Under the pieces are notes generated by a model, which made no database searches, had not been told where the DNA came from, and worked only from the letters and a program-made list of their open reading frames with translations. From Candidatus Altimarinota bacterium (GTDB taxonomy: Bacteria > Patescibacteriota > Gracilibacteria > BD1-5 > UBA6164): a DNA stretch of 34,569 nt. Below are positions 16,129 to 34,569 of this stretch, in pieces. The stretch's first letter is position 1. The number at the start of each line of letters is the position of its first letter. Location of the stretch: NCBI GenBank assembly GCA_028697205.1, contig JAQVFO010000010.1, positions 1 to 34,569 of the forward strand. Reading direction: 5' to 3'. The translations under genes and the position numbers were made by a program.

Positions 16129-16164
16129 AAAAACACTAGGATTATAAATAATTCTAGTGTTTTT
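16129..16164 (-). terminator. terminator of the TPR gene
   Basis: AAAAACACTAG (16129-16139) pairs exactly with CTAGTGTTTTT (16154-16164) around a 14-nt loop. On the minus strand it follows the TPR stop codon and ends in a T run, so it separates the TPR gene from the pilin gene. Confidence 0.8.
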
Positions 16165-16191
16165 ACAAATATTTTACATTGACAGATTATA

Positions 16192-17004
16192 CTAACTATT
16201 AATAATGTTTTGTTCTAACCTTCTAACATTGTCTATGGTTGTTGTATCATAAGGTCTAATATTTAGTATTTCTTCATATACTTTTATAGCATCCTTTAAT
16301 TTTCATAAATTTTCTAAAGATGTTGCTTTCATTTTCATCATATCTACATTTTTTGGTTTTTCTTTCAAAACAAGTGTTATATATTTCAATGCTTTTTCAA
16401 AATGTTGAATTTCATAAGTTAAATTAGCAAGCATAAGTATTATATCATTATCTGATTGTTTTCTTTCATGAACCTTTTCATAAATAGTAACTGATTCTTC
16501 CAGATTTCATTGCATAGCAACAATATATCCTAGTTTTGTTAAAATTACAGTATTATCTTTATGAACTAAACACATATCTTTATATATAAACTCTGCATTT
16601 TTATAGTTTTTTTCTTGTTCATATATGTAAGCTAACTCTAAATTTAATTCTTTATTATATTTATCTATAGTAAGTCATTCAATAATAAGTGTTCTAGCTA
16701 CATCATAATATCACTTTTCTATATTAACTTTAACTCTTTTTAAAATTTCTGAAATCTTTATTTTTTCATCTTCTGTTAAATTTTTTAAAGTTGGATCATA
16801 AGTCTTTTTAATACTAACTTTTGATGACTCTTTATTCATACTCACAGTTTGTAAAATATCCCCTTCTCTTTTTTTTACAGAAGATACTATACTTTTTATC
16901 TTGTAAAAAACACGATAAAAATAATTTACAGAGTAGTAAATACTATATGAAAGTGAAGACAAAAGTACAAATAATTCAATTCTAAGTATAACTAAATTTT
17001 CCAT
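16192..17004 (-). CDS. membrane-anchored TPR protein
   Basis: A 270-residue protein. Residues 5-30 are hydrophobic and aromatic and likely anchor it in the membrane. After a basic, Ser-rich linker a run of tetratricopeptide repeats begins near residue 100: YYDVARTLIIEGLTIDKYN, NLELAYIYEQEKNYKNAEFIYKD, TKLGYIVAMQGNLEESVTIYEK, MLANLTYEIQHFEKALKYI and KATSLENLGKLKDAIKVYEE. The positions of Gly, Ala and Pro fit the 34-residue repeat. TPR domains hold protein partners; being encoded just upstream of pilin genes, it could assist pilus assembly, which is inference. A TTG at 17016 would add four residues; I prefer the ATG at 17004. Confidence 0.85.
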
Positions 17005-17085
17005 AAAAATAATCAAAGTAATTTCTAAATTTTAATCATTTTATTCAAATTAATCTTCTTTTCAATAAATAAAAAACAATAAATC

Positions 17086-17113
17086 TTGACAAATGGATTA
17101 ATAATTTTATATT
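17086..17113 (+). promoter_or_regulatory. putative sigma-70-type promoter
   Basis: Consensus TTGACA at 17086-17091 and TATATT at 17108-17113, 16 bp apart, about 28 nt before the ATG at 17142. Confidence 0.6.
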
Positions 17114-17141
17114 TATCATAATATCTAATATTTTTAATATT

Positions 17142-17780
17142 ATGAATAATATAAATACTTCAAGTGAAATATGATTTAGTTACTTTTTCCCATGAAATGA
17201 GAAAGAGTTAAAAATAAACTTAAAATTACTAAGTTCAATGGAAATATTTGTAGACTTAATATCTAAGATTTTAGAAGTTCAAAATCTAGAAATAAGAAAA
17301 AGATTTCAAATTGAAACTTTAAAAATGATTTTTTGATTTAAATGAAATATATGAAGAGTATTAAAAACAAAATGAAAAATAGTTTTATGATATAAAGATA
17401 AAAATCAAACAAAAAAATTAGATTTTGACTTTTGAGATGAGGAAGAAATAATTTTACCTATATATGATAATTGAAAAATTGAACAATTAAGCACTAGCTC
17501 ATGAAACCTTATTGTTGCTATAATGCTTGATATAATGACTCTATTATACAAAAGACAAGAATTATCTGAATCCCTTCAAAAAAGTGACAAAATAAGAAAA
17601 AATCATATAGATAAAAGTATTGAACAAAAAAGAGAAAAATTAACCAATGAAATACTACATAGACATAATATACTTAAATCTTTAATCTCATTATGAATTT
17701 GAAACCAAGATATGACAGTTACATCATGAGAAAATAATTGAAGAAAAAGTAATTTAGAATTAACTTTACTAAGAATTTAA
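17142..17780 (+). CDS. unknown soluble protein, possibly GAF-like
   Basis: A 212-residue protein with no signal peptide. The first 130 residues alternate helix and strand (LKLLSSMEIFVDLISKILEV, then VLKTKGKIVLGYKD and EIILPIYDNGKIEQL), an order that recalls a small GAF-like sensor fold, but no binding residues can be assigned. Residues 135-185 form a charged helix, probably a coiled coil (KRQELSESLQKSDKIRK, KRE KLTNEILHRHNILKSL). It has its own promoter. Its 3' end overlaps that of dprA by 4 bp in convergent orientation. The GAF idea is a low-confidence guess. Confidence 0.65.
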
Positions 17781-18841
17781 CTCACCTCATATTTCCCTCA
17801 TTCTCATTTTTTTATAATTCATCTTATTTCAAGCATAGATAAATTAACTGATAAATCAGTTAATCACAAATTTAATTTTTTCATCAAATCATCAACTGAA
17901 AAACTTTCTAAAAGTAAAGTTTCATAAATAATTGATTCCAATTCATTTACAAAACTTATTTTTTCAGTTTTTTGTGATGTATTTAAAGTATTAATATTAT
18001 ATTCCTCAAGTATATCTTCACTACAAGTTACCATCTTTGCATTACCATTTTTTAACAGATTATTACATCATAAAGAATTAGTTCTAAATATATCTCAAGG
18101 AATTGAAAATATATCTTTTCATTGTTCTAAAGCTAAATTTACAGTTATCAATGTTCAAGATTTTTCTTGTGCTTCTATAACTAAAACTCAAACAGATAAT
18201 CATGATATAATTTCATTTCTTATAGGAAAATTATAAACATTTCCAGGTTCTCAAAGTGGAAAAATAGAAATAATTCATCATCATTTTTTTATTATTTCGT
18301 CATAGAGTTTTTTATTAAAAGTCGGATAATCTATATCTATTCCAGTTCAAATAATCGCCAAAGTTTTTCACTCATTTTTTATAGTTTCAATATGAGCCTC
18401 ACTATCACATCACATAGCTCATCAACTAACAATTGTAAAATATTTTGATAATGTAGGGATAATTTTTCAGATAGCATTTTCTCAATAACTTGTCATTTTT
18501 CTAGATCCAATAACTGCTATTTTTGGAGAATTATCAATTTGTCACCTAACATACAAAAAATATGGAGGATTAGCAATTTCCTTTAATAACTTTGGATATT
18601 TTTCATCTTTTATTGTAATAATTTCTACATTTTTTTCATGTATAATTTTATTTATTTTATTTAAATCAATTTGTAGTTTTCTTTCTAAAATTTTTTCAAT
18701 TTCTTTTTCATTAAAAAATGATTTTAAGTTTGAAAAATTTATTTTCTCATAAAATTCTTTATAATTTTCAGATTTTTCAAAAATAACAGAAAGTTTTCTT
18801 TGAGAAATTCAAATAGAATGTAATGCAACTAAATATAACAT
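17777..18841 (-). CDS. dprA: DNA processing protein A
   Basis: A 354-residue DprA/Smf protein. It binds incoming single-stranded DNA during natural transformation and loads RecA. The Rossmann-fold hallmarks are in order: PKLLKEIANPPYFLYVRG, AVIGSRKMTSYG near residue 108, SGGAMGCDSEAH near 138, IGTGIDIDYP near 165, GNVYNFPIRNEIISGLS near 198, EAQEKSGTLITV near 222 and IPGDIFRTNSLGCNNLL near 247. The C-terminal segment SFSVDDLMKKLNLGLTDLS fits the winged helix of DprA. A pilin gene lies nearby, so competence for DNA uptake is conceivable. The EamA gene lies 16 nt upstream in the same direction. Confidence 0.95.
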
Positions 18842-18857
18842 AAAATATAGTTAAAAT

Positions 18858-19706
18858 CTACCTATAAAATACTCCTAAACTTACAAGTCCCAAAATGATA
18901 ATAGACAAAATGATATCTTTCTTTTGAGGTTTATCTTGAAAAAATATATATGAAAATAATAGCGAAAATGCTAAAAATATAAAAGAGATTAAAATATTCA
19001 TAACCATTCCTAATTCTGAAATAAGTATAAGAGAAAAAAGGTATGCTAAAGCTCCCAGCATAGAAGATATAAAAGCATTTTTATAAAATCACTTTGATAA
19101 GGTTTTTATAGTTTTTAACTCCTTAAAATACAAAACAATTAAAAATGATATAAAAATAGATAAAGTAGAATCAATAATAAAATAATTTATTGAAGAAATA
19201 AGTAATAATATATATCAAATGATTATAGAATATATCGCAGTTAAAAATTGATTTAAAATGAATAATCTAATATTTTTTGACATTGATAAATTCTTAAAAT
19301 CAATAGCAGATCATATTATTACTAAAGAAGTGAAAATTGTTATTAAAAATGATAGTATAGAAATATCATCTTTTAGAAATAAAAATGAAAAAATAATTGT
19401 TAAAACTTTATTTAAATTTGTGTATGGAGTTAAAACGGATATTTTCTCACTTTTATATACTAACTGATTTAAATAATTTCTTAAAAGCCCTAAAATAATA
19501 ACTGCCAAAGCCAATATAAAAATTTTCTTGTCAAGCTCTACATAATTATTTCCAAAAAATAAAAAATAAATAGCTATTCAAAGATAAGTAAAACACCATA
19601 AAAAATAAATAAGTGTTGAAGATATATCTTTATCTCATGATATTGATTTTTTCCGAAATATTTGAGATAGACTTGATAAAAAAGCGTTTAATATTCAAAA
19701 AAACAT
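18858..19706 (-). CDS. EamA/DMT-superfamily permease
   Basis: A 282-residue integral membrane protein with about ten hydrophobic helices in two halves, as usual for drug/metabolite transporters. The first half ends near SISILSFLITIFTSLVII; the second starts near NIRLFILNQFLTAIYSII. The typical EamA features are the YKSEKISVLTPYTNLNKVLTII segment before helix 4 and the KKDIILSIIILGLVSLGV last helix. Substrate unknown. Codon 18 is CGG (19653-19655), in SQIF-CGG-KKS, which either Arg or Trp could fill. It is upstream of dprA by 16 nt and probably shares its transcript. Confidence 0.82.
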
Positions 19707-26202: not shown

Positions 26203-26279
26203 ATGGACCTAGCTTAATTAGAAGAGTGCTCAGATTCCGACCCTGAGAGACGTTGGTGCAATTCCAACGGTCCATGCCA
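26203..26279 (+). tRNA. tRNA with anticodon CCG, probably tRNA-Trp
   Basis: A 77-nt cloverleaf with encoded CCA. The acceptor stem ATGGACC/GGTCCAT is perfect. The first pair A1-U72 and discriminator G73 are the bacterial tryptophan identity elements, and the D-arm (GCTTAATTAGAAGAGT) resembles that of tRNA-Trp. The anticodon stem CTCAG/CTGAG closes a 9-nt loop ATTCCGACC, or a 7-nt loop TTCCGAC if an A-C mismatch adds a sixth pair; CCG is centred either way. The T arm is GTTGG-TGCAATT-CCAAC, with T54 followed by G instead of the usual T55. It should read CGG. Arginine is the formal alternative, but the CGG codons in PheS and the GH-like protein fit Trp. Confidence 0.75.
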
Positions 26280-26386: not shown

Positions 26387-27157
26387 TTACAATACTCTTT
26401 CAACTCTATGACATAAAACATTTTCATCCTCTAAATTAACCCAAAGTAGGTATGTATCATTATTTGCTAATATAGGAGTTCAATTATTGTCATATCAAAT
26501 AACTTCTCATTTTCTTACAAAAGAAAAATCTGCTAAACCTTTTTCTAAACTAGAAATATCTCTCTTTAATACTTCTCCACTCCACGTATAAACTTCTTTA
26601 TTTAACCTTGTTCATCTATTTAAATTTCTCATAATATCAAGAATAGATTCTGTAACTATATCAATATTTAAAGGATTATTATTATTTCATATCTCAATAG
26701 CAATTGCATTTCTATATCTTGATATTAAAGCTCATTCTAATCAATCAATTAAATAAACTCTATTAATTAAAGAAGTGCCATTTACTGTTGGTAAATTTAG
26801 TTTTTGATGTGAATCTATTATAAAATATCATGGAACTGTAAAAGATGTAGAATGTAAATCAATTATATGTGAAAACCTACTTAAAAAAGCATCTAACTCT
26901 CATGCTAATTTATTTTCTAAAAGTCAACTATTATGTCAAATAGATTCTGTAGTAAAAGATCTATTTAAATCAGTATCAATATATCTGACTCATTTTTCTT
27001 GAGCCATTTTGTTTGCAATAACATAGGTAACATTTTTTACCATTTTTTCTTTCAATCTATTAATAACTTTTAGTCATAAAGTTTCATCTCAATGAGTACA
27101 TCATATAATAGCTAAATTATATGGATTGTCTCAATATTGTTCAAATGTAAAACTCAT
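26387..27157 (-). CDS. AstE/AspA-type zinc deacylase (M14-like)
   Basis: A 256-residue protein of the succinylglutamate desuccinylase/aspartoacylase family. Zinc ligands are visible: His22 and Glu25 in IIGCTHGDETLG, and His102 in IIDLHSTSF. Between them lies the family signature RYIDTDLNRSF (residues 58-68), whose Asn-Arg binds the substrate carboxylate. These enzymes cut an amide bond next to an acidic or amino acid group. It is the last gene of the minus-strand cluster, 4 nt after a radical SAM gene, so it is probably cotranscribed. It could trim or deacylate a modified peptide or small molecule; the true substrate cannot be read from the sequence. A terminator lies beyond. Confidence 0.82.
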
Positions 27158-27161
27158 AAAA

Positions 27162-28190
27162 TTAATTATAATTAAAAATCTTAGGTTTATTTGATAATTT
27201 GTTTTCTAAAAATAATCCATAAAAATGCCGATTATCAAAGCATTTGTTACATGCATTTTTTGATTCTTTAAAAAATTTATCAAGAAATATGCTATTAGCT
27301 CTCTCTATTATTAATTCTTCTTCATAAGGATCTTCTAAATTCATTTGTCATAATACTTTATGTCATCTACTACCACATCAATATAATAAAAATTTTCAGT
27401 GAGTCCATAAAGTATTTCCTAAATATTTTATATGCAAAGCCCATTTATGCATTTTACAACTTCATAATATTTCTCATCTATAATACTTAATTAATTCATA
27501 AAAGTATTCCTTATAATTACTTAATAGCTTGTATTTGTCTATACTGTCTTCTAAATCTATTAAGAATTTTTTAATAACATCCGCATCTAATCTGAATCCC
27601 TCCTTATTTAAATAATTTACTAATTCAAAAGGAATACACCATAATCTTTTTTCATCTATTTCTTTTTTATATTTACTTTCTAAAAATTTTATTAACTCTA
27701 AATAATTAGGAATACTCTTAGGATGTAATACAGTCAATAACTCAACGCAAAATCAATTACTAAGTAAAGTATCTATGTTTCATAAAATATTATCTAAATT
27801 CTGTTTATTTTTAAACCTAAAAATATTATCTTCTAAATTAATTCAATCTAAAGATATAGCAAAAAATATCTTATTAGGATTATATTTATTTAAATCTAAT
27901 TGTTTATGTAATATGGTTCCATTAGTTGATACTCTAATAACTTTATTATCAAATTTAGTATATACTTCTTCTATAATTTCAGGAAATAAAGTAGGTTCTC
28001 ATCATGTTAATGATATAACTTTTAATTCAGGAATTTTACTATCAATAAAATTCTTTAAATTATATATGTTTTTTTTGAAATTACTAACCTCTTTATCAGT
28101 AAACTTTCTATCAAACTTTTTAGTATACATACAATAATCACAATTTAAAGTACAATATACTTCTCAAAAAACAAAATTTAGTAAAAACAT
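27162..28190 (-). CDS. radical SAM protein with C-terminal Cys cluster
   Basis: A 342-residue radical SAM enzyme. The cluster motif CTLNCDYC comes at once (Cys13, Cys17, Cys20), followed by the SAM-binding SLTGGEPTLFPEI near residue 62. After the barrel there are further cysteines: GSCKMHKW near 262, LLYGCGSRG near 285 and NACNKCFDN near 313-322, a partial SPASM or twitch-like auxiliary cluster region. Codon 321 is CGG (27228-27230) in FDN-CGG-HFYG, and Trp fits well after the Cys-x-x-Cys pair. No N-terminal PqqD-like domain. It lies 19 nt after the third radical SAM gene and 4 nt before the deacylase, deep in the operon. Probably a peptide- or cofactor-modifying enzyme. Confidence 0.85.
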
Positions 28191-28209: not shown

Positions 28210-29238
28210 TTATTTAATCCAACATTGTGAGTCTATTTTGTTAAAATTCTTATACAACCCATAATTTACTGCAGGACATCACCTACAAACATTTTTTAAT
28301 TTACATTTTAAACATCACTTTATCAAATTTCATTTATGTATTTTATCTATATATAGACTATTTTCATAAATATCTATCAAACTATTTTCTGTTATATTTC
28401 AAATTTTTATAGGTAACTTCCTACAAAGTAGTACATCTCAATTTTCTATCACTGTTAGGTGTCTATATCACATTCAGCAACCATAAACTTTATCATCTAA
28501 GTCAATGTTTAATTTATTATTTTCATAATATAAAAGTTTCCATAAATGATCTTTCTTTCAAATTTGTAGTTTACATTTTTCTGATTTTAACTTTTCCTCT
28601 ACTTTTAATATTTTTAATAATAAATCTTTAAATTCACTATTGGTAACCATTATATTTTTAGATGCTTTTCACATAGGAACAACTCTAACAAAGTCAAATC
28701 TAGATAACTTAGTATTTCTAGCTAGATATTCAATTAATGGAATAACCTCATTAATATTCCACTTTGAAACAGTCATATTTACCAATGATTGTATATTGTT
28801 ATTTTCTAGCTTTTCTATAGCCTTAACAACTTCTTTAAAAGTTCATTTTCATCTAATTTCCTCATGTTTATTTTCAAGTCATTCAATACTTAATTGATAA
28901 AAATTAATTCATTTTTCTTTTAACCAAGCAATATTTTTATCTGTAAGTAAATGGTAATTTCAAAAAAGAGAAACCTTTAATCAATTTTTCAACGAATACT
29001 CTACTATATCTTTAAACTTTGGATATAACCAGGGATCTCATCAAGTAAAATAAACTTTTCATTCAATATTATATTTTCTCAAAAAAGATATATAATTATC
29101 AATTCAAGATGAAATACTATTAAAATCTAATGCTACAGGTTTTGAAAAATCTACATAACAATGTTTGCATCTTAACTGACATGCATTTGTAATATGCCAT
29201 TGCAATGTAAAAAGTTTAAATGGTTTTTTTTCTTGCAT
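28210..29238 (-). CDS. radical SAM/SPASM maturase
   Basis: A 342-residue enzyme. The radical SAM motif is CQLRCKHCY (Cys20, Cys24, Cys27), with the SAM-binding VYFTGGDPWLYP near residue 63 and IEGLENKHEEIRGKG near 119-133. The SPASM domain is well formed: YGCGMGYRHL and VLLCRKLPIKIGNI near residues 245-275, then CLKCKLKNVCRGCPA near 311-325, ending SQCWIK, so two auxiliary Fe-S clusters can be expected. It has no PqqD-like N-terminus. Its start overlaps the methyltransferase gene end by 23 bp, so translation is probably coupled. Families of this shape form C-C, C-S or C-N links in ribosomal peptides. Confidence 0.9.
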
Positions 29239-29947
29239 TTGTTAAATATTTATGGCGAGTTAAAAAAAATGATTTATTATCTTTAAATAATTTTTCTAGT
29301 ACTAAAATATATTTTTCTTTATTTAAATAAAAATCTTCAATTATAGGTGCTATTTCTAACATTTTTACTAATGTATCAATATCTTTATATTCCTCTAAAA
29401 ATGTAAATTCTCATTCATATAAAATATCAAAATTACTATCTATTAGTTTTGTTCTAAATTCATTAATAGACTCATGTGGGGGTAAATTAAATAGTTTTTT
29501 AAGTTCAATAGCATCATATTCTCAGTTTGTAAAATTTATAAAAATTCAATTAGGAATTAAAATTCTTGATATTTCTTTTAAGTTATCTGGAGCTAGTCTT
29601 TTTATTACTAAATCAAATAAATTATCACCATATGGAATATTATTTATATTTCATTTTTTAAATGTAATATTTTTATATTCTTTACAATTTTCTTTTGCTA
29701 TATTTAACATTTCCTCGGAGAAATCCATAGAAATCATATCTTTTCATATATATCAAATTGTTTTAGGAACAATTCATAATCAAGTTCATAATTCAATTAT
29801 AGAATCTGATATTCTTATAAATAAATCAACCATTTTATAAAATGATTGATTTCATTTTACTCAATGTATAATTATTTTATGTCAATTATCATCATAAAAC
29901 TTTTTTCTTTTCTTTGCACTAGTATTATAAAAATCATGTTCTTGCAT
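29216..29947 (-). CDS. class I SAM-dependent methyltransferase
   Basis: A 243-residue methyltransferase of the ubiE/type 11 group. Motif I is IELGTGLGIVPK near residues 51-62, in which every Gly but one is encoded by UGA. The acidic end of strand 2 is MISMDFSEEMLNIA; the DLVIKRLAPDNLKEISRIL segment fills the motif IV-V region, and IPNGIFINFTNGEY the strand-6/7 region. The C-terminal 90 residues are not typical of the family and may form the substrate pocket. Encoded between two radical SAM enzymes in the same operon, it may methylate the peptide, but the target is inferred from context alone. Confidence 0.85.
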
Positions 29948-29957
29948 ATTTTTTTTA

Positions 29958-31211
29958 TTAATTAATATTTTTGAAACAATATTTATCTTCATTATTTAAA
30001 ACTCATTCAATTCAAAAAACTCTTGCTCTACATCATCAACAACTATCTTTAAAATTACATTTTCAACATCATTTAATTTCTCACCTTCTTCTTATCTTAT
30101 TTAAGCTATTACTATTATTCCATATATTTTTAAATGTATCATTATTAATATTTCAAACCTCAAGTTCTGAGAAAAAAGGACAAGGTAAAACTTCTCATAA
30201 TTCTGTTATAGCAGAAGTTGTAAATCAAGCAGGACATCAAATTTTTAGTATATCAGGTTTTTTATCATCTTTTGATACAATATTTTCTCAACTGCTAATT
30301 AAAAACATTGATTCTCATATAACATTCATTTTGCCACTAAATTTTTCTCTTTGTAATTTAAAAATTTTTATATATTTATCTAATATTTTCGAATCATTAT
30401 AATAATTAACTTGTAAATTAGAACCTTGTCCTTGAGGAATCAGTAAATTAGTTTTGTGAGCTGAAGCTCATAGAGTATATGCTAAATCTATTATTTTTTT
30501 ATATTCATCAAAGTCTTGGTTTACTAAAGTAGTTACTAAAGTAAAATTGATTCAATATTTTTTTAAAATATTTAGATTGGTAATCGTTTTAAAAAAACTA
30601 TTTTTAACTCATCTAATTAAATCATGCTTATTATCCAAATAAGAATCTAATGATATATGAACTTGTCTTAATCATAAATCATATAACTTTTTCACATTAT
30701 TATCTGTTAACAAAATTCAATTTGTTGACATTGTCATTTTAAGTCATTTTCAAAAACCATATTCAAATATACTATAAACATCTGGATGCATAAGAGCTTC
30801 TCATCAAGATACATTTATGTTAAATACTTTCATTTCAACTAATTCATCAATTAGTAACTTTACTTTACTTAATGATAAATCTATAACTCATTTATCTTTT
30901 CTATGACAATGTATGCATTTTAAATTACATTTATCAGTTATTTGTAAAGTTACATTTAGAGGTGCCGTTAATTCTCAACTTCAAAATATTTCATTACTAT
31001 TTAAAATATCAATATTATCTAATAAATTTTCACTATTTAAAAATTTAATAAAATTTTCTGTTTCTTTTTTTTCTCTAATTATTCAATTTATTGAGATATT
31101 ATCTGATATATATTTTGGGAAGATTAATAATTTTTTGTTTTCAGGATGTAATAACATAAAACTATTTAATTCATTTCTCCATAAAATGTTATTTTTTAAT
31201 TTATAATACAT
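29958..31211 (-). CDS. radical SAM/SPASM maturase with possible RRE-like N-terminus
   Basis: A 417-residue enzyme. Residues 1-85 form a small domain (NNILWRNELNSFMLLHP, then KYISDNISINGIIREKK and FIKFLNSENLLDN) that could be a diverged PqqD-like peptide-recognition domain. The radical SAM motif is CNLKCIHC (Cys95, Cys99, Cys102), with NVSGGEALMHP near residue 132. The SPASM domain has GCPAGFTTSAI, LPCPFFSELEVGNI and GCGKCNFKDSCGGCRAR before the final Cys, a full set for two auxiliary clusters. It has 14 nt to the gene upstream and 10 nt to the methyltransferase. The closest well-known types are PqqE and mycofactocin or thioether-forming maturases; the reaction is unknown. Confidence 0.88.
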
Positions 31212-31225
31212 TCTACTATGTTAAA

Positions 31226-32533
31226 TTATAAATGAGCAACACACAATGGATCAGATGCATCTAATTTATTATATCTTAAATAAGCAGTAGCTCTGCATCA
31301 TCATCTACAAGTTTCAAGATGTTTACAAGAATTACATTTTCAGTCTATTTTATCTATTTTTCTAATTTCATTCATAATTTTTGAATCTTTCCAAATTTCT
31401 AATAATGGTTTATTAGAAATATTTCAACATACTAAATCTTCATGATTCATATATGAACATGGATAAACATTACCATAAGAATCAATTCAGCAAGTTGATC
31501 TTCATGCTGGACATCAATAATGACATTCTGGCATCCAATCAATATTTTTAATACTTGGATTTAAAACATTTTTATTAACTATAATATTAAATTTTGGATT
31601 TTGATTTTTTTCTTGATATTTAAATATATTTTCATACACAAGTCTTAATTCTTTTAATGTTAATTGGATATCAAGTTTATTGTCACATCCTCTTCAGGTT
31701 TCCATAAGTGGAGAAACTTTATAAAATGATGCTCCTAAATCTTGAGATAAATTAATTATATCTATAATCTCTAAATGGTTAATTTTTGTTAAAACTGTAT
31801 TAATTGATACAACAAAGTCATTTTCAACAAGTTTCCTAATATTTTCTTTTATCAATTCAAAATTAGATCAAGGTCTCATTGTTTCAAAACTAGTTTTAGT
31901 AGCACCATCTAAACTTACCTGAATGAACTTTAATCAACAATGTTTTAGTTTCTTTATATTTAAGTCTGTCAACAATGATCAATTTGTAGTAAGTTCAATT
32001 TTTAATCACTTTAAAGAACAATAATTTATTACCTCAAATATATGTTTATACATAAGAGGTTCTCATCATCATATATTAAAAAATTCAACACCATTGTTTA
32101 CCATCTCATCAACTAATTTCTTTGCAGTATTTAATTCTATTCATTCAAATCATTTAATATTTGATTCTGAATAACAATGTATACACTTAAAATTACATAT
32201 TTGAGTTGATTCCCAATATACAGTTCTAGGAAAACTCATAGCATCTTCGGAAATTATTTCATTTTCAATAATTGACACATTAAATATTTCATAATTATCT
32301 TTAAATACTAAAATTCCCTTTTTAACTAATAAATCTATCAATGTGTCTATCTCTCAATGTTTATACAATGGAAATTTTTCATATAAATCAGAAACTATAT
32401 TTCAATTAATAACTTTTAATAAATCAATATATTTATTTGATACTAAAAATCTTCTTCAATCTAAAGTAAGAATAAGTGTTCAAAAATGTTCTTTTCTAAT
32501 TAATGTATCTTTCGAAAAAAAAACTTTATCCAT
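31226..32533 (-). CDS. radical SAM/SPASM maturase with PqqD-like N-terminal domain
   Basis: A 435-residue enzyme, the best typical PqqE-like member here. Residues 1-85 match the PqqD-like RiPP recognition element: EHFGTLILTLDGRRFLVSNK, then IDLLKVINGNIVSDLYEKF and LIDLLVKKGILVFKD. The radical SAM motif is CNFKCIHC (Cys113, Cys117, Cys120), followed by FNIGGGEPLMYKH and QVSLDGATKTSFETMRPGS. The SPASM domain is complete: ECHYGCPAGRSTCGID, VYPCSYMNHEDLVCGNI and KCNSCKHLETCRGGCRATA, then the last Cys in DPLCVAHL. It overlaps the metalloprotease gene by 8 bp. The domain order says it binds a leader peptide and modifies its core, most likely the product of 33194-33337. Confidence 0.9.
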
Positions 32534-33146
32534 TTTCTTTTAAGTAAGCAATTAAATTTTTTGATATATCAATATTTTTAAATTTATCTGGTAAATTATT
32601 ATCTAAAAAACTAATAAACTCACCTAAATCTAATTTTTTAAATTCTGAATAATATTTATGTGAATATAAAATTGCATCTAAATGAAAACTATCAATATTT
32701 TTGTAATAAATAAAATCAATTGTATCTATTCCATCTAATTCCTCAATAATTTGTTTTTCTATACAAAAACAAATTATTTCTTCTATAAATCTATTTAAAT
32801 TATGTTTTTTCAATAAAAAGTGTGATATTTCATGTCAAATTAGTCATATATAATAGTTATTACAAAAACTTGGTTGTCATAACACAATTACTCAATTAGA
32901 AGTATTAATTGCTCATAAATAAAAATATTCAGGATAAACTTCAATAATAATATTTTCATTAAAATCTCAAAAAAAATTATTTAATTTACTATATAAAAAT
33001 ATTTTTTTATTATTATACTGTTTTATAATTTTGTTTTTAAGGTTATTTGAATCTTTTATTATTACATCAATATCCGTTTTTTTATTAAGTTTATTTTTAA
33101 AGTATGTTAATCACTCTAAACTAGTTTTAATATTAATTTTTAACAT
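32526..33146 (-). CDS. HEISH zinc metalloprotease-like protein
   Basis: A 206-residue soluble protein. The zinc-protease motif HEISH is at residues 105-109 in YYIGLIGHEISHFLLKKH; His105 and His109 would bind zinc, Glu106 would be the base, and a Glu in NRFIEEIICFCIEKQ (122, 123 or 130) could be the third ligand, as in gluzincins. The N-terminal part is a mixed alpha/beta lead-in. No signal peptide, so it would act inside the cell. Position between the peptide gene and the first maturase suggests it removes the leader peptide. Translation overlaps the next gene by 8 bp, while a hairpin separates it from the peptide gene upstream. Proteolytic role is inference. Confidence 0.78.
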
Positions 33147-33166
33147 AAAATTTTTTCTTATATAAC

Positions 33167-33194
33167 AAAAAAGGAAACAATTGTTTCCTTTTTT
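33167..33194 (-). terminator. hairpin terminator after the precursor peptide
   Basis: A 28-nt perfect palindrome, AAAAAAGGAAACAA joined to its complement. On the minus strand it begins in the stop codon of the 47-residue peptide and ends in TTTTTT, so it is a Rho-independent terminator; leaky read-through would express the maturation genes at lower level. Confidence 0.85.
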
Positions 33195-33337
33195 TAGTCT
33201 CAACAACCAGAAAATTGCCAAGACTCAGCTTCATAATAATCTTTTACAACACAATCCACAGCATCAGTAACTTCAGGAGAAAGTTTTGCTTCAGTTCCTT
33301 TAGATGGTAACTCAGCATCACTCATTGTATTTACCAT
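33194..33337 (-). CDS. putative RiPP precursor peptide
   Basis: A 47-residue peptide. The first 27 residues are a polar, Glu/Asp/Lys-rich leader (MVNTMSDAELPSKGTEAKLS, then PEVTDAV). The C-terminal part carries two Cys (29 and 45), paired Tyr (34, 35), Trp40 and Phe42: DCVVKDYYEAESWQFSGCGD at 28-47. Small size, position as first gene of a radical SAM/SPASM operon, a leader/core contrast and the terminator right after it mark a RiPP precursor. Cys29-x3-Asp33 recalls the Cys-to-Asp thioether spacing of freyrasin-type ranthipeptides, but no repeat is present. An internal Met5 is an alternative start. No similarity search was possible. Confidence 0.68.
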
Positions 33338-33393: not shown

Positions 33394-34569
33394 TTATCTT
33401 AATACATACCCTAATTCTTTTTCTAATTCTACTCTAATCTTAAAATATGTCAAATTAATTTCTTCATTGGTTAATGTTCTATCAATTGCTCTAAAAGTTA
33501 TCCTAACTGTTACAGATTTATTTTGAGCTCAAAACTTTTTATCATTTTCATACATATCTAAAATCTTTACTTCTTCAACCAAATCTCATGCAATATCTCT
33601 AATAATTGCAGATAGAGAAAATAAATCAGATTCTGACTCTTTAAGTAATTCTAATTCTCAAGATTTTTTTTCTTCTTCATAATCTCTTACAAAACTATCT
33701 TTTGGTATGATAAAGGAAATATCCTTAAATACTGGAGGAAAGTTACTTACTTCTTTATATGCTTCAAAATTTCCCCACTGACTTGTAATTCTTTTATCAT
33801 TACTCCAAAAAATTCTTATATCTGGTACATTTTTAAAAGCCATTGTTAACCTATCTAATCAAAATCAAAATGCCCATCAATTATATTTAGTTGGATCCAA
33901 TCATAATTTTTCTAAAACTGTAGGATGAACAATTCACGCTCATAACACTTCAAGCCGTGCTCAGTTATACATTACCTCAACTTCCAAACTATCAATTGTA
34001 TAAGGAAAATTATCTACATTAAACCTATACTCCACATTATCTCAAAACAATGCTTTTATTGTATTTGACAAAACTTCTTTCAAAGTATCTTGAGTTATAA
34101 CTTCTTTATTTTTTTCAGTAATTCTTAATCCATCAATCTGGTGAAAACATTCATGGTGAGTCTTATCTAATTCGTCTACACGATAAACTTTCCCCCAAGA
34201 TAAAGCCTTTACTTCTCATTCTTTTAATAACTTATCAAGTCATCATTGTTTTACCAAAAAATGATACCACATAACTGAAGTATGTGGTCTTAGCAACATA
34301 CTATTTCTTTTATCACTAGATTTATTTATAAAGTAACTATCAGTTACTCTACGAGCAACATGGTTCTCAGGAAAATTAAACAAATCAAATGTTTCAAATT
34401 CTCATACAACTTCAGGAACATCAACATGTGAAAATCATTTAAAAAAATTAGACTTTACTATTCTGTCAATTACCATTTGTATAGGATGTCAAGGAATTGA
34501 AGCTAAATTTGGCATTTCATAGACTCTTATGATTCTATTTATGTATGCTATTTGGGAAGCAGATAAATT
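33394..34569 (-). CDS. pheS: phenylalanyl-tRNA synthetase, single-chain-like, 5' end missing
   Basis: The last 391 residues; the start lies beyond the right edge. The catalytic part is PheS-like: HPIQMVIDRIVKSNFF, SMLLRPHTSVMWYHFL, GKVYRVDELDKTHHECFHQI, then the motif-3 region GWAFGFGLDRLTMAFKNVPD and DIRIFW. The remaining 100 residues form an FDX-ACB anticodon-binding domain (FPPVFKDISFIIP, GDLVEEVKILDMYEN, RITFRAIDRTLTNEEI), which in bacteria normally ends PheT, not PheS. This fusion is the layout of the monomeric mitochondrial enzyme. Codon 33955-33957 is CGG where PheRS has the Trp of the WLEVLG motif. It runs into the RiPP-like cluster in the same direction, 56 nt before the peptide. Confidence 0.92.
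33426..33453 (-). promoter_or_regulatory. putative promoter inside the 3' end of pheS
   Basis: On the minus strand TTGACA (33453-33448) and TAGAAT (33431-33426) are 16 bp apart. Transcription would begin near 33419 and give an 80-nt leader for the precursor peptide, letting the cluster be expressed independently of pheS. Confidence 0.5.

What the first reader, a model, noticed from the sequence alone, without database searches (positions are those of the whole stretch)
33194..33337. 47-residue peptide with Cys-x3-Asp, Tyr-Tyr and a Trp...Cys end as the likely precursor
An acidic polar leader of 27 residues is followed by a core with two Cys, two Tyr and one Trp, residues that radical SAM maturases typically crosslink. 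Cys29-x3-Asp33 has the same spacing as the Cys-Asp thioethers of freyrasin-type ranthipeptides; Tyr and Trp could equally take part in cyclophane or C-C links.
Basis: partly seen in the sequence, partly recalled or inferred. Interest (0 to 1): 0.75.

Follow-up and report, generated by a model that had tools for sequence, protein, structure and literature searches.

The report
Peptide precursor with invariant C-terminal core
A 47-residue peptide in a tiny, code-altered bacterium ends in a 14-residue stretch that is identical in three distantly related species and always sits at the head of the same set of modifying-enzyme genes, so it is very probably the raw material for an unknown small molecule made by radical chemistry.

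Summary
The minus-strand frame 33337-33194 encodes 47 residues once TGA is read as Gly, the code of this Absconditabacteria/Gracilibacteria-type genome. It is a real gene. Two genomes of another family in the class carry it in the same place, between a PheS-like ligase gene and genes for an HExxH protease and radical SAM maturases. Upstream parts differ, but the last 14 residues, YYEAESWQFSGCGD, are identical in all three once TGA=Gly and CGA=Trp are applied; CGA aligns with Trp in 10 of 12 places in one relative. Among 353 class genomes the peptide and the first maturase occur in the same three only. Its specific chemistry is not: Cys29 of the supposed Cys-x3-Asp thioether is absent in both relatives, and no maturase reaches the PapB cut-off. 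Tyr-Tyr, Trp and the terminal Cys are invariant, so other chemistry in the last 14 residues stays open. An invariant C-terminus behind a variable leader, with no exporter in the operon, resembles PQQ and mycofactocin precursors more than a bacteriocin. Product and ligase role are unproven. New variant of a known kind.

The parts
33194..33337 (-). precursor peptide gene, 47 aa (TGA=Gly at residue 46)
   Evidence: syntenic orthologues in G523 (L072:12354-12509 -) and G543 (L075:2534-2647 -)
33194..33238 (-). invariant 14-residue C-terminus YYEAESWQFSGCGD plus stop codon
   Evidence: Identical in three species under TGA=G, CGA=W
33239..33337 (-). variable N-terminal part (putative leader), contains non-conserved Cys29
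   Evidence: Alignment A1
33160..33194 (-). strong hairpin followed by U-run right after the peptide stop (terminator/attenuator-like)
   Evidence: Fold -12.9 kcal/mol, z -4.7; a hairpin of different sequence at the same place in G523 (z -4.8), none in G543. The consensus terminator scan did not list it
32526..33146 (-). putative zinc metalloprotease, HExxH (HEISH)
   Evidence: HExxH kept in G523 (HEFIH) and G543 (HEVGH, fused to the maturase); weak Pfam M48 hit E=0.28
31226..32533 (-). radical SAM/SPASM maturase 1 with N-terminal winged-helix, RRE-like domain
   Evidence: Pfam PF04055 and PF13186; N-terminal profile best PDB match is the N-terminus of radical SAM protein 8vpo, E=0.0012
29958..31211 (-). 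radical SAM/SPASM enzyme 2
   Evidence: 52% identical orthologue in G523, fused there to the methyltransferase
29216..29992 (-). class I SAM-dependent methyltransferase
28210..29238 (-). radical SAM/SPASM enzyme 3 (nearest ACGX-system and SbtM models, below cut-off)
27162..28190 (-). radical SAM enzyme 4, no SPASM domain found
26387..27157 (-). AstE/AspA-type zinc hydrolase
   Evidence: PF24827; 38% identical syntenic orthologue in G523
33394..34569 (-). PheS-related single-chain ligase with FDX-ACB domain (SrmL-like), 5' end cut by the contig end
   Evidence: NF051887 224 bits, cut-off 300; separate canonical PheS and PheT elsewhere; adjacent to the peptide in all three genomes

Best explanation
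The frame is the precursor of a ribosomal, post-translationally modified peptide. The variable N-terminal part acts as leader, probably bound by the RRE-like N-terminus of maturase 1. The radical SAM enzymes and the methyltransferase modify the invariant C-terminus YYEAESWQFSGCGD. The HExxH protease and the AstE/AspA-type hydrolase cut the product out, and the PheS-like ligase may add or activate an aromatic amino acid. Because the C-terminus does not vary between distant species and the operon has no exporter, one constant small product (cofactor-like or signal-like) is more likely than a diversifying toxin. Shown: gene, synteny, invariant C-terminus, enzyme families, co-occurrence. Inferred: leader binding, modification, excision, product type and the ligase's role.
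For: Syntenic peptide, ligase, protease and maturase 1 in three genomes; the whole gene order in two. Peptide and maturase 1 occur in the same 3 of 353 class genomes. Core 14/14 identical with synonymous codon change. Radical SAM, SPASM, methyltransferase and hydrolase families; catalytic Cys motif and SPASM cysteines kept in maturase 1. The operon genes abut or overlap and hold no other small frame. Mycofactocin was recognised by the same pattern, an invariant C-terminus behind a diverse upstream part (PMC3023750).
Against: No modification was observed, no relative outside the class was found, and no maturase reaches a curated family cut-off among those shown. The RRE-like domain rests on one weak profile match, and the structure predictions failed (mean pLDDT 36 and 41). 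The cluster of one of the three genomes is cut by a contig end. Absence of an exporter was judged from the operon only.
Confidence: 0.78

Rival explanations
1. Freyrasin-type ranthipeptide: Cys29 is linked to Asp33 by a radical SAM thioether.
For: Spacing Cys29-x3-Asp33 matches the CX3D motif of PapA (PMC9413430).
Against: Cys29 is absent in both orthologues although the C-terminus is invariant; one motif instead of six; PapB model far below cut-off.
Confidence: 0.04
2. A secreted antimicrobial peptide whose target is PheRS, with the extra PheS-like enzyme as self-resistance copy.
For: A second PheS-like gene stands next to the peptide in all three genomes. Duplicated targets as immunity are known for other synthetase inhibitors (own knowledge).
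Against: The same kind of ligase stands alone in about ten relatives without the peptide, once inside an aromatic amino acid gene run. The peptide does not diversify, and there is no exporter in the operon.
Confidence: 0.08
3. A regulatory leader peptide: its translation controls a hairpin in front of the operon (attenuation).
For: A terminator-like hairpin follows the stop codon in two genomes.
Against: The hairpin is missing in G543, the peptide is not a run of one amino acid, and conservation is of amino acids with free synonymous change and confined to the last 14-15 residues.
Confidence: 0.05
4. The PheS-like gene is a bystander; only peptide, protease, radical SAM enzymes, methyltransferase and hydrolase form the system (a variant of the best explanation).
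For: PheS-like genes of this kind are found without the cluster, and the three linked copies do not form a supported clade.
Against: It is directly upstream on the same strand in all three genomes, while maturase identity is only about 45-55%.
Confidence: 0.3

Closest known systems
Mycofactocin precursor system (MftA/MftC)
   Same: Short peptide with diverse upstream part and invariant C-terminus next to a radical SAM/SPASM enzyme and a hydrolase; patchy distribution; maturase 1 scores 190 bits with the mycofactocin maturase model (cut-off 265).
   Different: Unrelated C-terminus, four radical SAM enzymes plus methyltransferase and PheS-like ligase, no separate MftB-like gene or glycosyltransferase in the operon.
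PQQ pathway (PqqA/PqqE/PqqD)
   Same: Small precursor, PqqE-related SPASM enzyme, dedicated protease; the core holds a Glu-x3-aromatic spacing (Glu38, Phe42) like the Glu-x3-Tyr of PqqA (own knowledge, a lead only).
   Different: Phe instead of Tyr, score far below the PqqE cut-off, none of PqqB, PqqC or PqqF seen in the operon.
Freyrasin and other ranthipeptides (PapA/PapB)
   Same: Radical SAM/SPASM enzyme and Cys/Asp in the peptide.
   Different: The Cys of the CX3D motif is not conserved; no PapB-level maturase.
SrmL, PheS-related mystery ligase (NF051887)
   Same: Full-length match of the neighbouring gene, best model for it.
   Different: 224 bits, below the curated 300; function of the family unknown.

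Membership tests
Radical SAM-matured RiPP (general) | Short genetically encoded precursor next to radical SAM maturase, conserved together | tested here: met
Radical SAM-matured RiPP (general) | RRE or other leader-binding domain | tested here: inconclusive
   Winged-helix-like matches of the maturase 1 N-terminus, best E=0.0012; no Pfam hit; predictions of low confidence
Radical SAM-matured RiPP (general) | Modified peptide product | not testable with these tools
   Needs mass spectrometry
Ranthipeptide (PapB/freyrasin) | Conserved CX3D/E motif | tested here: not met
   Cys29 absent in orthologues
Ranthipeptide (PapB/freyrasin) | PapB-family maturase at curated cut-off | tested here: not met
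   Best 91 bits against 340
Mycofactocin | MftC at curated cut-off | tested here: not met
   190 bits against 265
PQQ biosynthesis | PqqE at curated cut-off, PqqA-like Glu-x3-Tyr | tested here: not met
   About 107-112 bits against 381; Glu-x3-Phe instead of Glu-x3-Tyr
SrmL (NF051887) | Curated cut-off 300 bits | tested here: not met
   224 bits, with the start of the protein cut by the contig end; uncut relatives also stay below
Absconditabacteria genetic code | TGA=Gly, CGA/CGG=Trp | tested here: met
   TGA at Gly columns 13 of 13 in G000; CGA at Trp 10 of 12 in G523; published code PMC8629427. In G000 no CGA occurs in 21 window genes and aligned CGG sites are few (2, both Trp)

The most novel reading that the evidence does not exclude
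A new peptide-derived cofactor or signal, built by three to four radical SAM enzymes and a methyltransferase on an invariant YYEAESWQFSGCGD tail and completed by a repurposed PheRS-like ligase, in ultra-small bacteria with recoded Gly and Trp codons.
Probability: 0.35. Interest if true: 0.85.

Novelty: new variant of a known kind. Interest (0 to 1): 0.64.

Why it matters
These bacteria have about 1.2-1.3 Mb genomes and few known biosynthetic pathways, yet three species keep a costly set of radical SAM enzymes around one invariant 14-residue tail. The tail contains recoded codons (TGA for Gly in two species, CGA for Trp in two), so standard annotation truncates it or writes Arg for Trp. The system makes two questions testable: whether such bacteria make a peptide-derived cofactor or signal, and what a PheS-related mystery ligase does, since here it has a fixed genetic partner.

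Tried and rejected
Table 4 (TGA=Trp): rejected, TGA aligns with Gly. Peptide hits in G017 and G018: not near radical SAM genes, chance. Weak peptide-profile hits in 11 further class genomes (E 0.009-0.07): cover parts only, not pursued. Relatives outside the class: none in the phylum sample, viral contigs or phages; one genome-contig scan gave only a 29% identical radical SAM protein, but its patterns assume the standard code. Structure prediction of maturase 1 and of its N-terminal domain from single sequences: too poor to use. Ligase tree: the three linked copies form no supported clade, unresolved. Literature: no paper found on SrmL as a ligase or on radical SAM peptides in Absconditabacteria.

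Full report
Genome and code. The window is a whole contig (C8) of a 1.27 Mb, 99% complete genome. Under table 11 there are almost no long genes; with TGA=Gly a full set appears. In an alignment of PheS-like proteins TGA stands at Gly columns (13 of 13 for G000) and CGG at a Trp column; in the relative G523 CGA stands at Trp. Across eight orthologous genes, G523 CGA aligns with Trp in 10 of 12 places, never with Arg. This is the published Absconditabacteria code (TGA=Gly, CGA and CGG=Trp; PMC8629427).

The frame. 33337-33194 on the minus strand gives MVNTMSDAELPSKGTEAKLSPEVTDAVDCVVKDYYEAESWQFSGCGD; residue 46 is the TGA codon. It lies 56 bases after the end of a PheS-like gene and is followed by a hairpin with a U-run, then by seven genes that abut or overlap: HExxH protease, two radical SAM/SPASM enzymes, methyltransferase, a third radical SAM/SPASM enzyme, a fourth radical SAM enzyme and an AstE/AspA-type hydrolase. 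No other small frame fits in this operon.

Relatives. Maturase 1 has orthologues in only two of the other 352 class genomes searched, G523 (50% identity over the whole length) and G543 (45%). In G523 the entire order ligase, peptide, protease, maturases, hydrolase is kept, with the methyltransferase fused to maturase 2. In G543 a 4.9 kb contig holds ligase, peptide and a protease-maturase 1 fusion before it ends. The G523 peptide is MEEKLLNNEKVCEVKEKEDQEIVKDYYEAESxQFSGCGD (or 12 residues longer at the start), the G543 peptide MEEKDVQIKDVAEKEVKSNTADEYYEAESxQFSGCGD, x being CGA. Read by the altered code x is Trp, so the last 14 residues are identical in all three. A phmmer search with the window peptide alone finds both (E=5e-8, 2e-6 in 649 segments). 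A profile of the three finds strong matches in the same three of 353 class genomes and in none of the other 379 genomes sampled from the phylum.

Selection. In the 14 core codons the pairs differ by 4 to 5 synonymous codons; the only other difference is TGG against CGA, synonymous in this code. With the same number of random base changes about 4 to 6 changed residues would be expected. The tail is therefore kept as protein.

The precursor idea is confirmed as far as sequence can do it. The Cys-x3-Asp idea fails: Cys29 is missing in both relatives, and the PapB model scores at most 91 bits against a cut-off of 340. PapB substrates use CX3D motifs (PMC9413430). Tyr34, Tyr35, Glu36, Glu38, Trp40, Phe42, Cys45 and Asp47 are invariant and are the candidate sites.

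Mechanism. The N-terminal profile of maturase 1 best matches the N-terminus of a solved radical SAM protein, 8vpo (E=0.0012), followed by weak matches that include winged-helix proteins; this fits an RRE-like leader-binding domain but is weak, and the structure predictions failed. The radical SAM enzymes score below every curated cut-off displayed. An invariant C-terminus behind a diverse upstream part is how mycofactocin was recognised (PMC3023750). With no exporter in the operon, a constant intracellular product is preferred over a toxin; this is inference.

The PheS-like ligase. The genome has a canonical PheS and a PheT elsewhere. The neighbour is a single-chain, mitochondrial-type relative. 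Against the canonical copies its signature reads FHQIDG instead of F-x-Q-x-EG and FPYT instead of FPFT/FPFV, so the amino acid pocket may differ; that is inference. Similar genes stand alone in about ten relatives, once in an aromatic amino acid gene run, and the linked copies form no supported clade. Its place in the pathway is likely but unproven.

Noticed in passing
window 26203-26279 (+): tRNA with anticodon CCG, called tRNA-Arg, has A1:U72 and discriminator G73 followed by CCA; these are Trp identity features, fitting CGG=Trp in this genome.
   Followed up: partly
L016 (G000:C12), 16130-18904: His-Xaa-Ser system: HxsB above cut-off, HxsD above cut-off, and an HxsA-like protein ending in HGS repeats, in the same recoded genome.
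   Followed up: partly
L016 and L015 (G000:C12:95000-113500): A run of more than ten radical SAM genes on one strand with a NifH/CfbC-like ATPase; function unknown.
   Followed up: no
L061 9240-10466 (G002): PheS-like mystery ligase inside an aromatic amino acid gene run (AroA-, AroC-, chorismate mutase- and prephenate dehydratase-like neighbours, judged from sequence).
   Followed up: no
L011 1405-2355 (G018): A 316-residue protein shares DAELPSxGxE with the window peptide's leader; not near radical SAM genes, probably chance.
   Followed up: no
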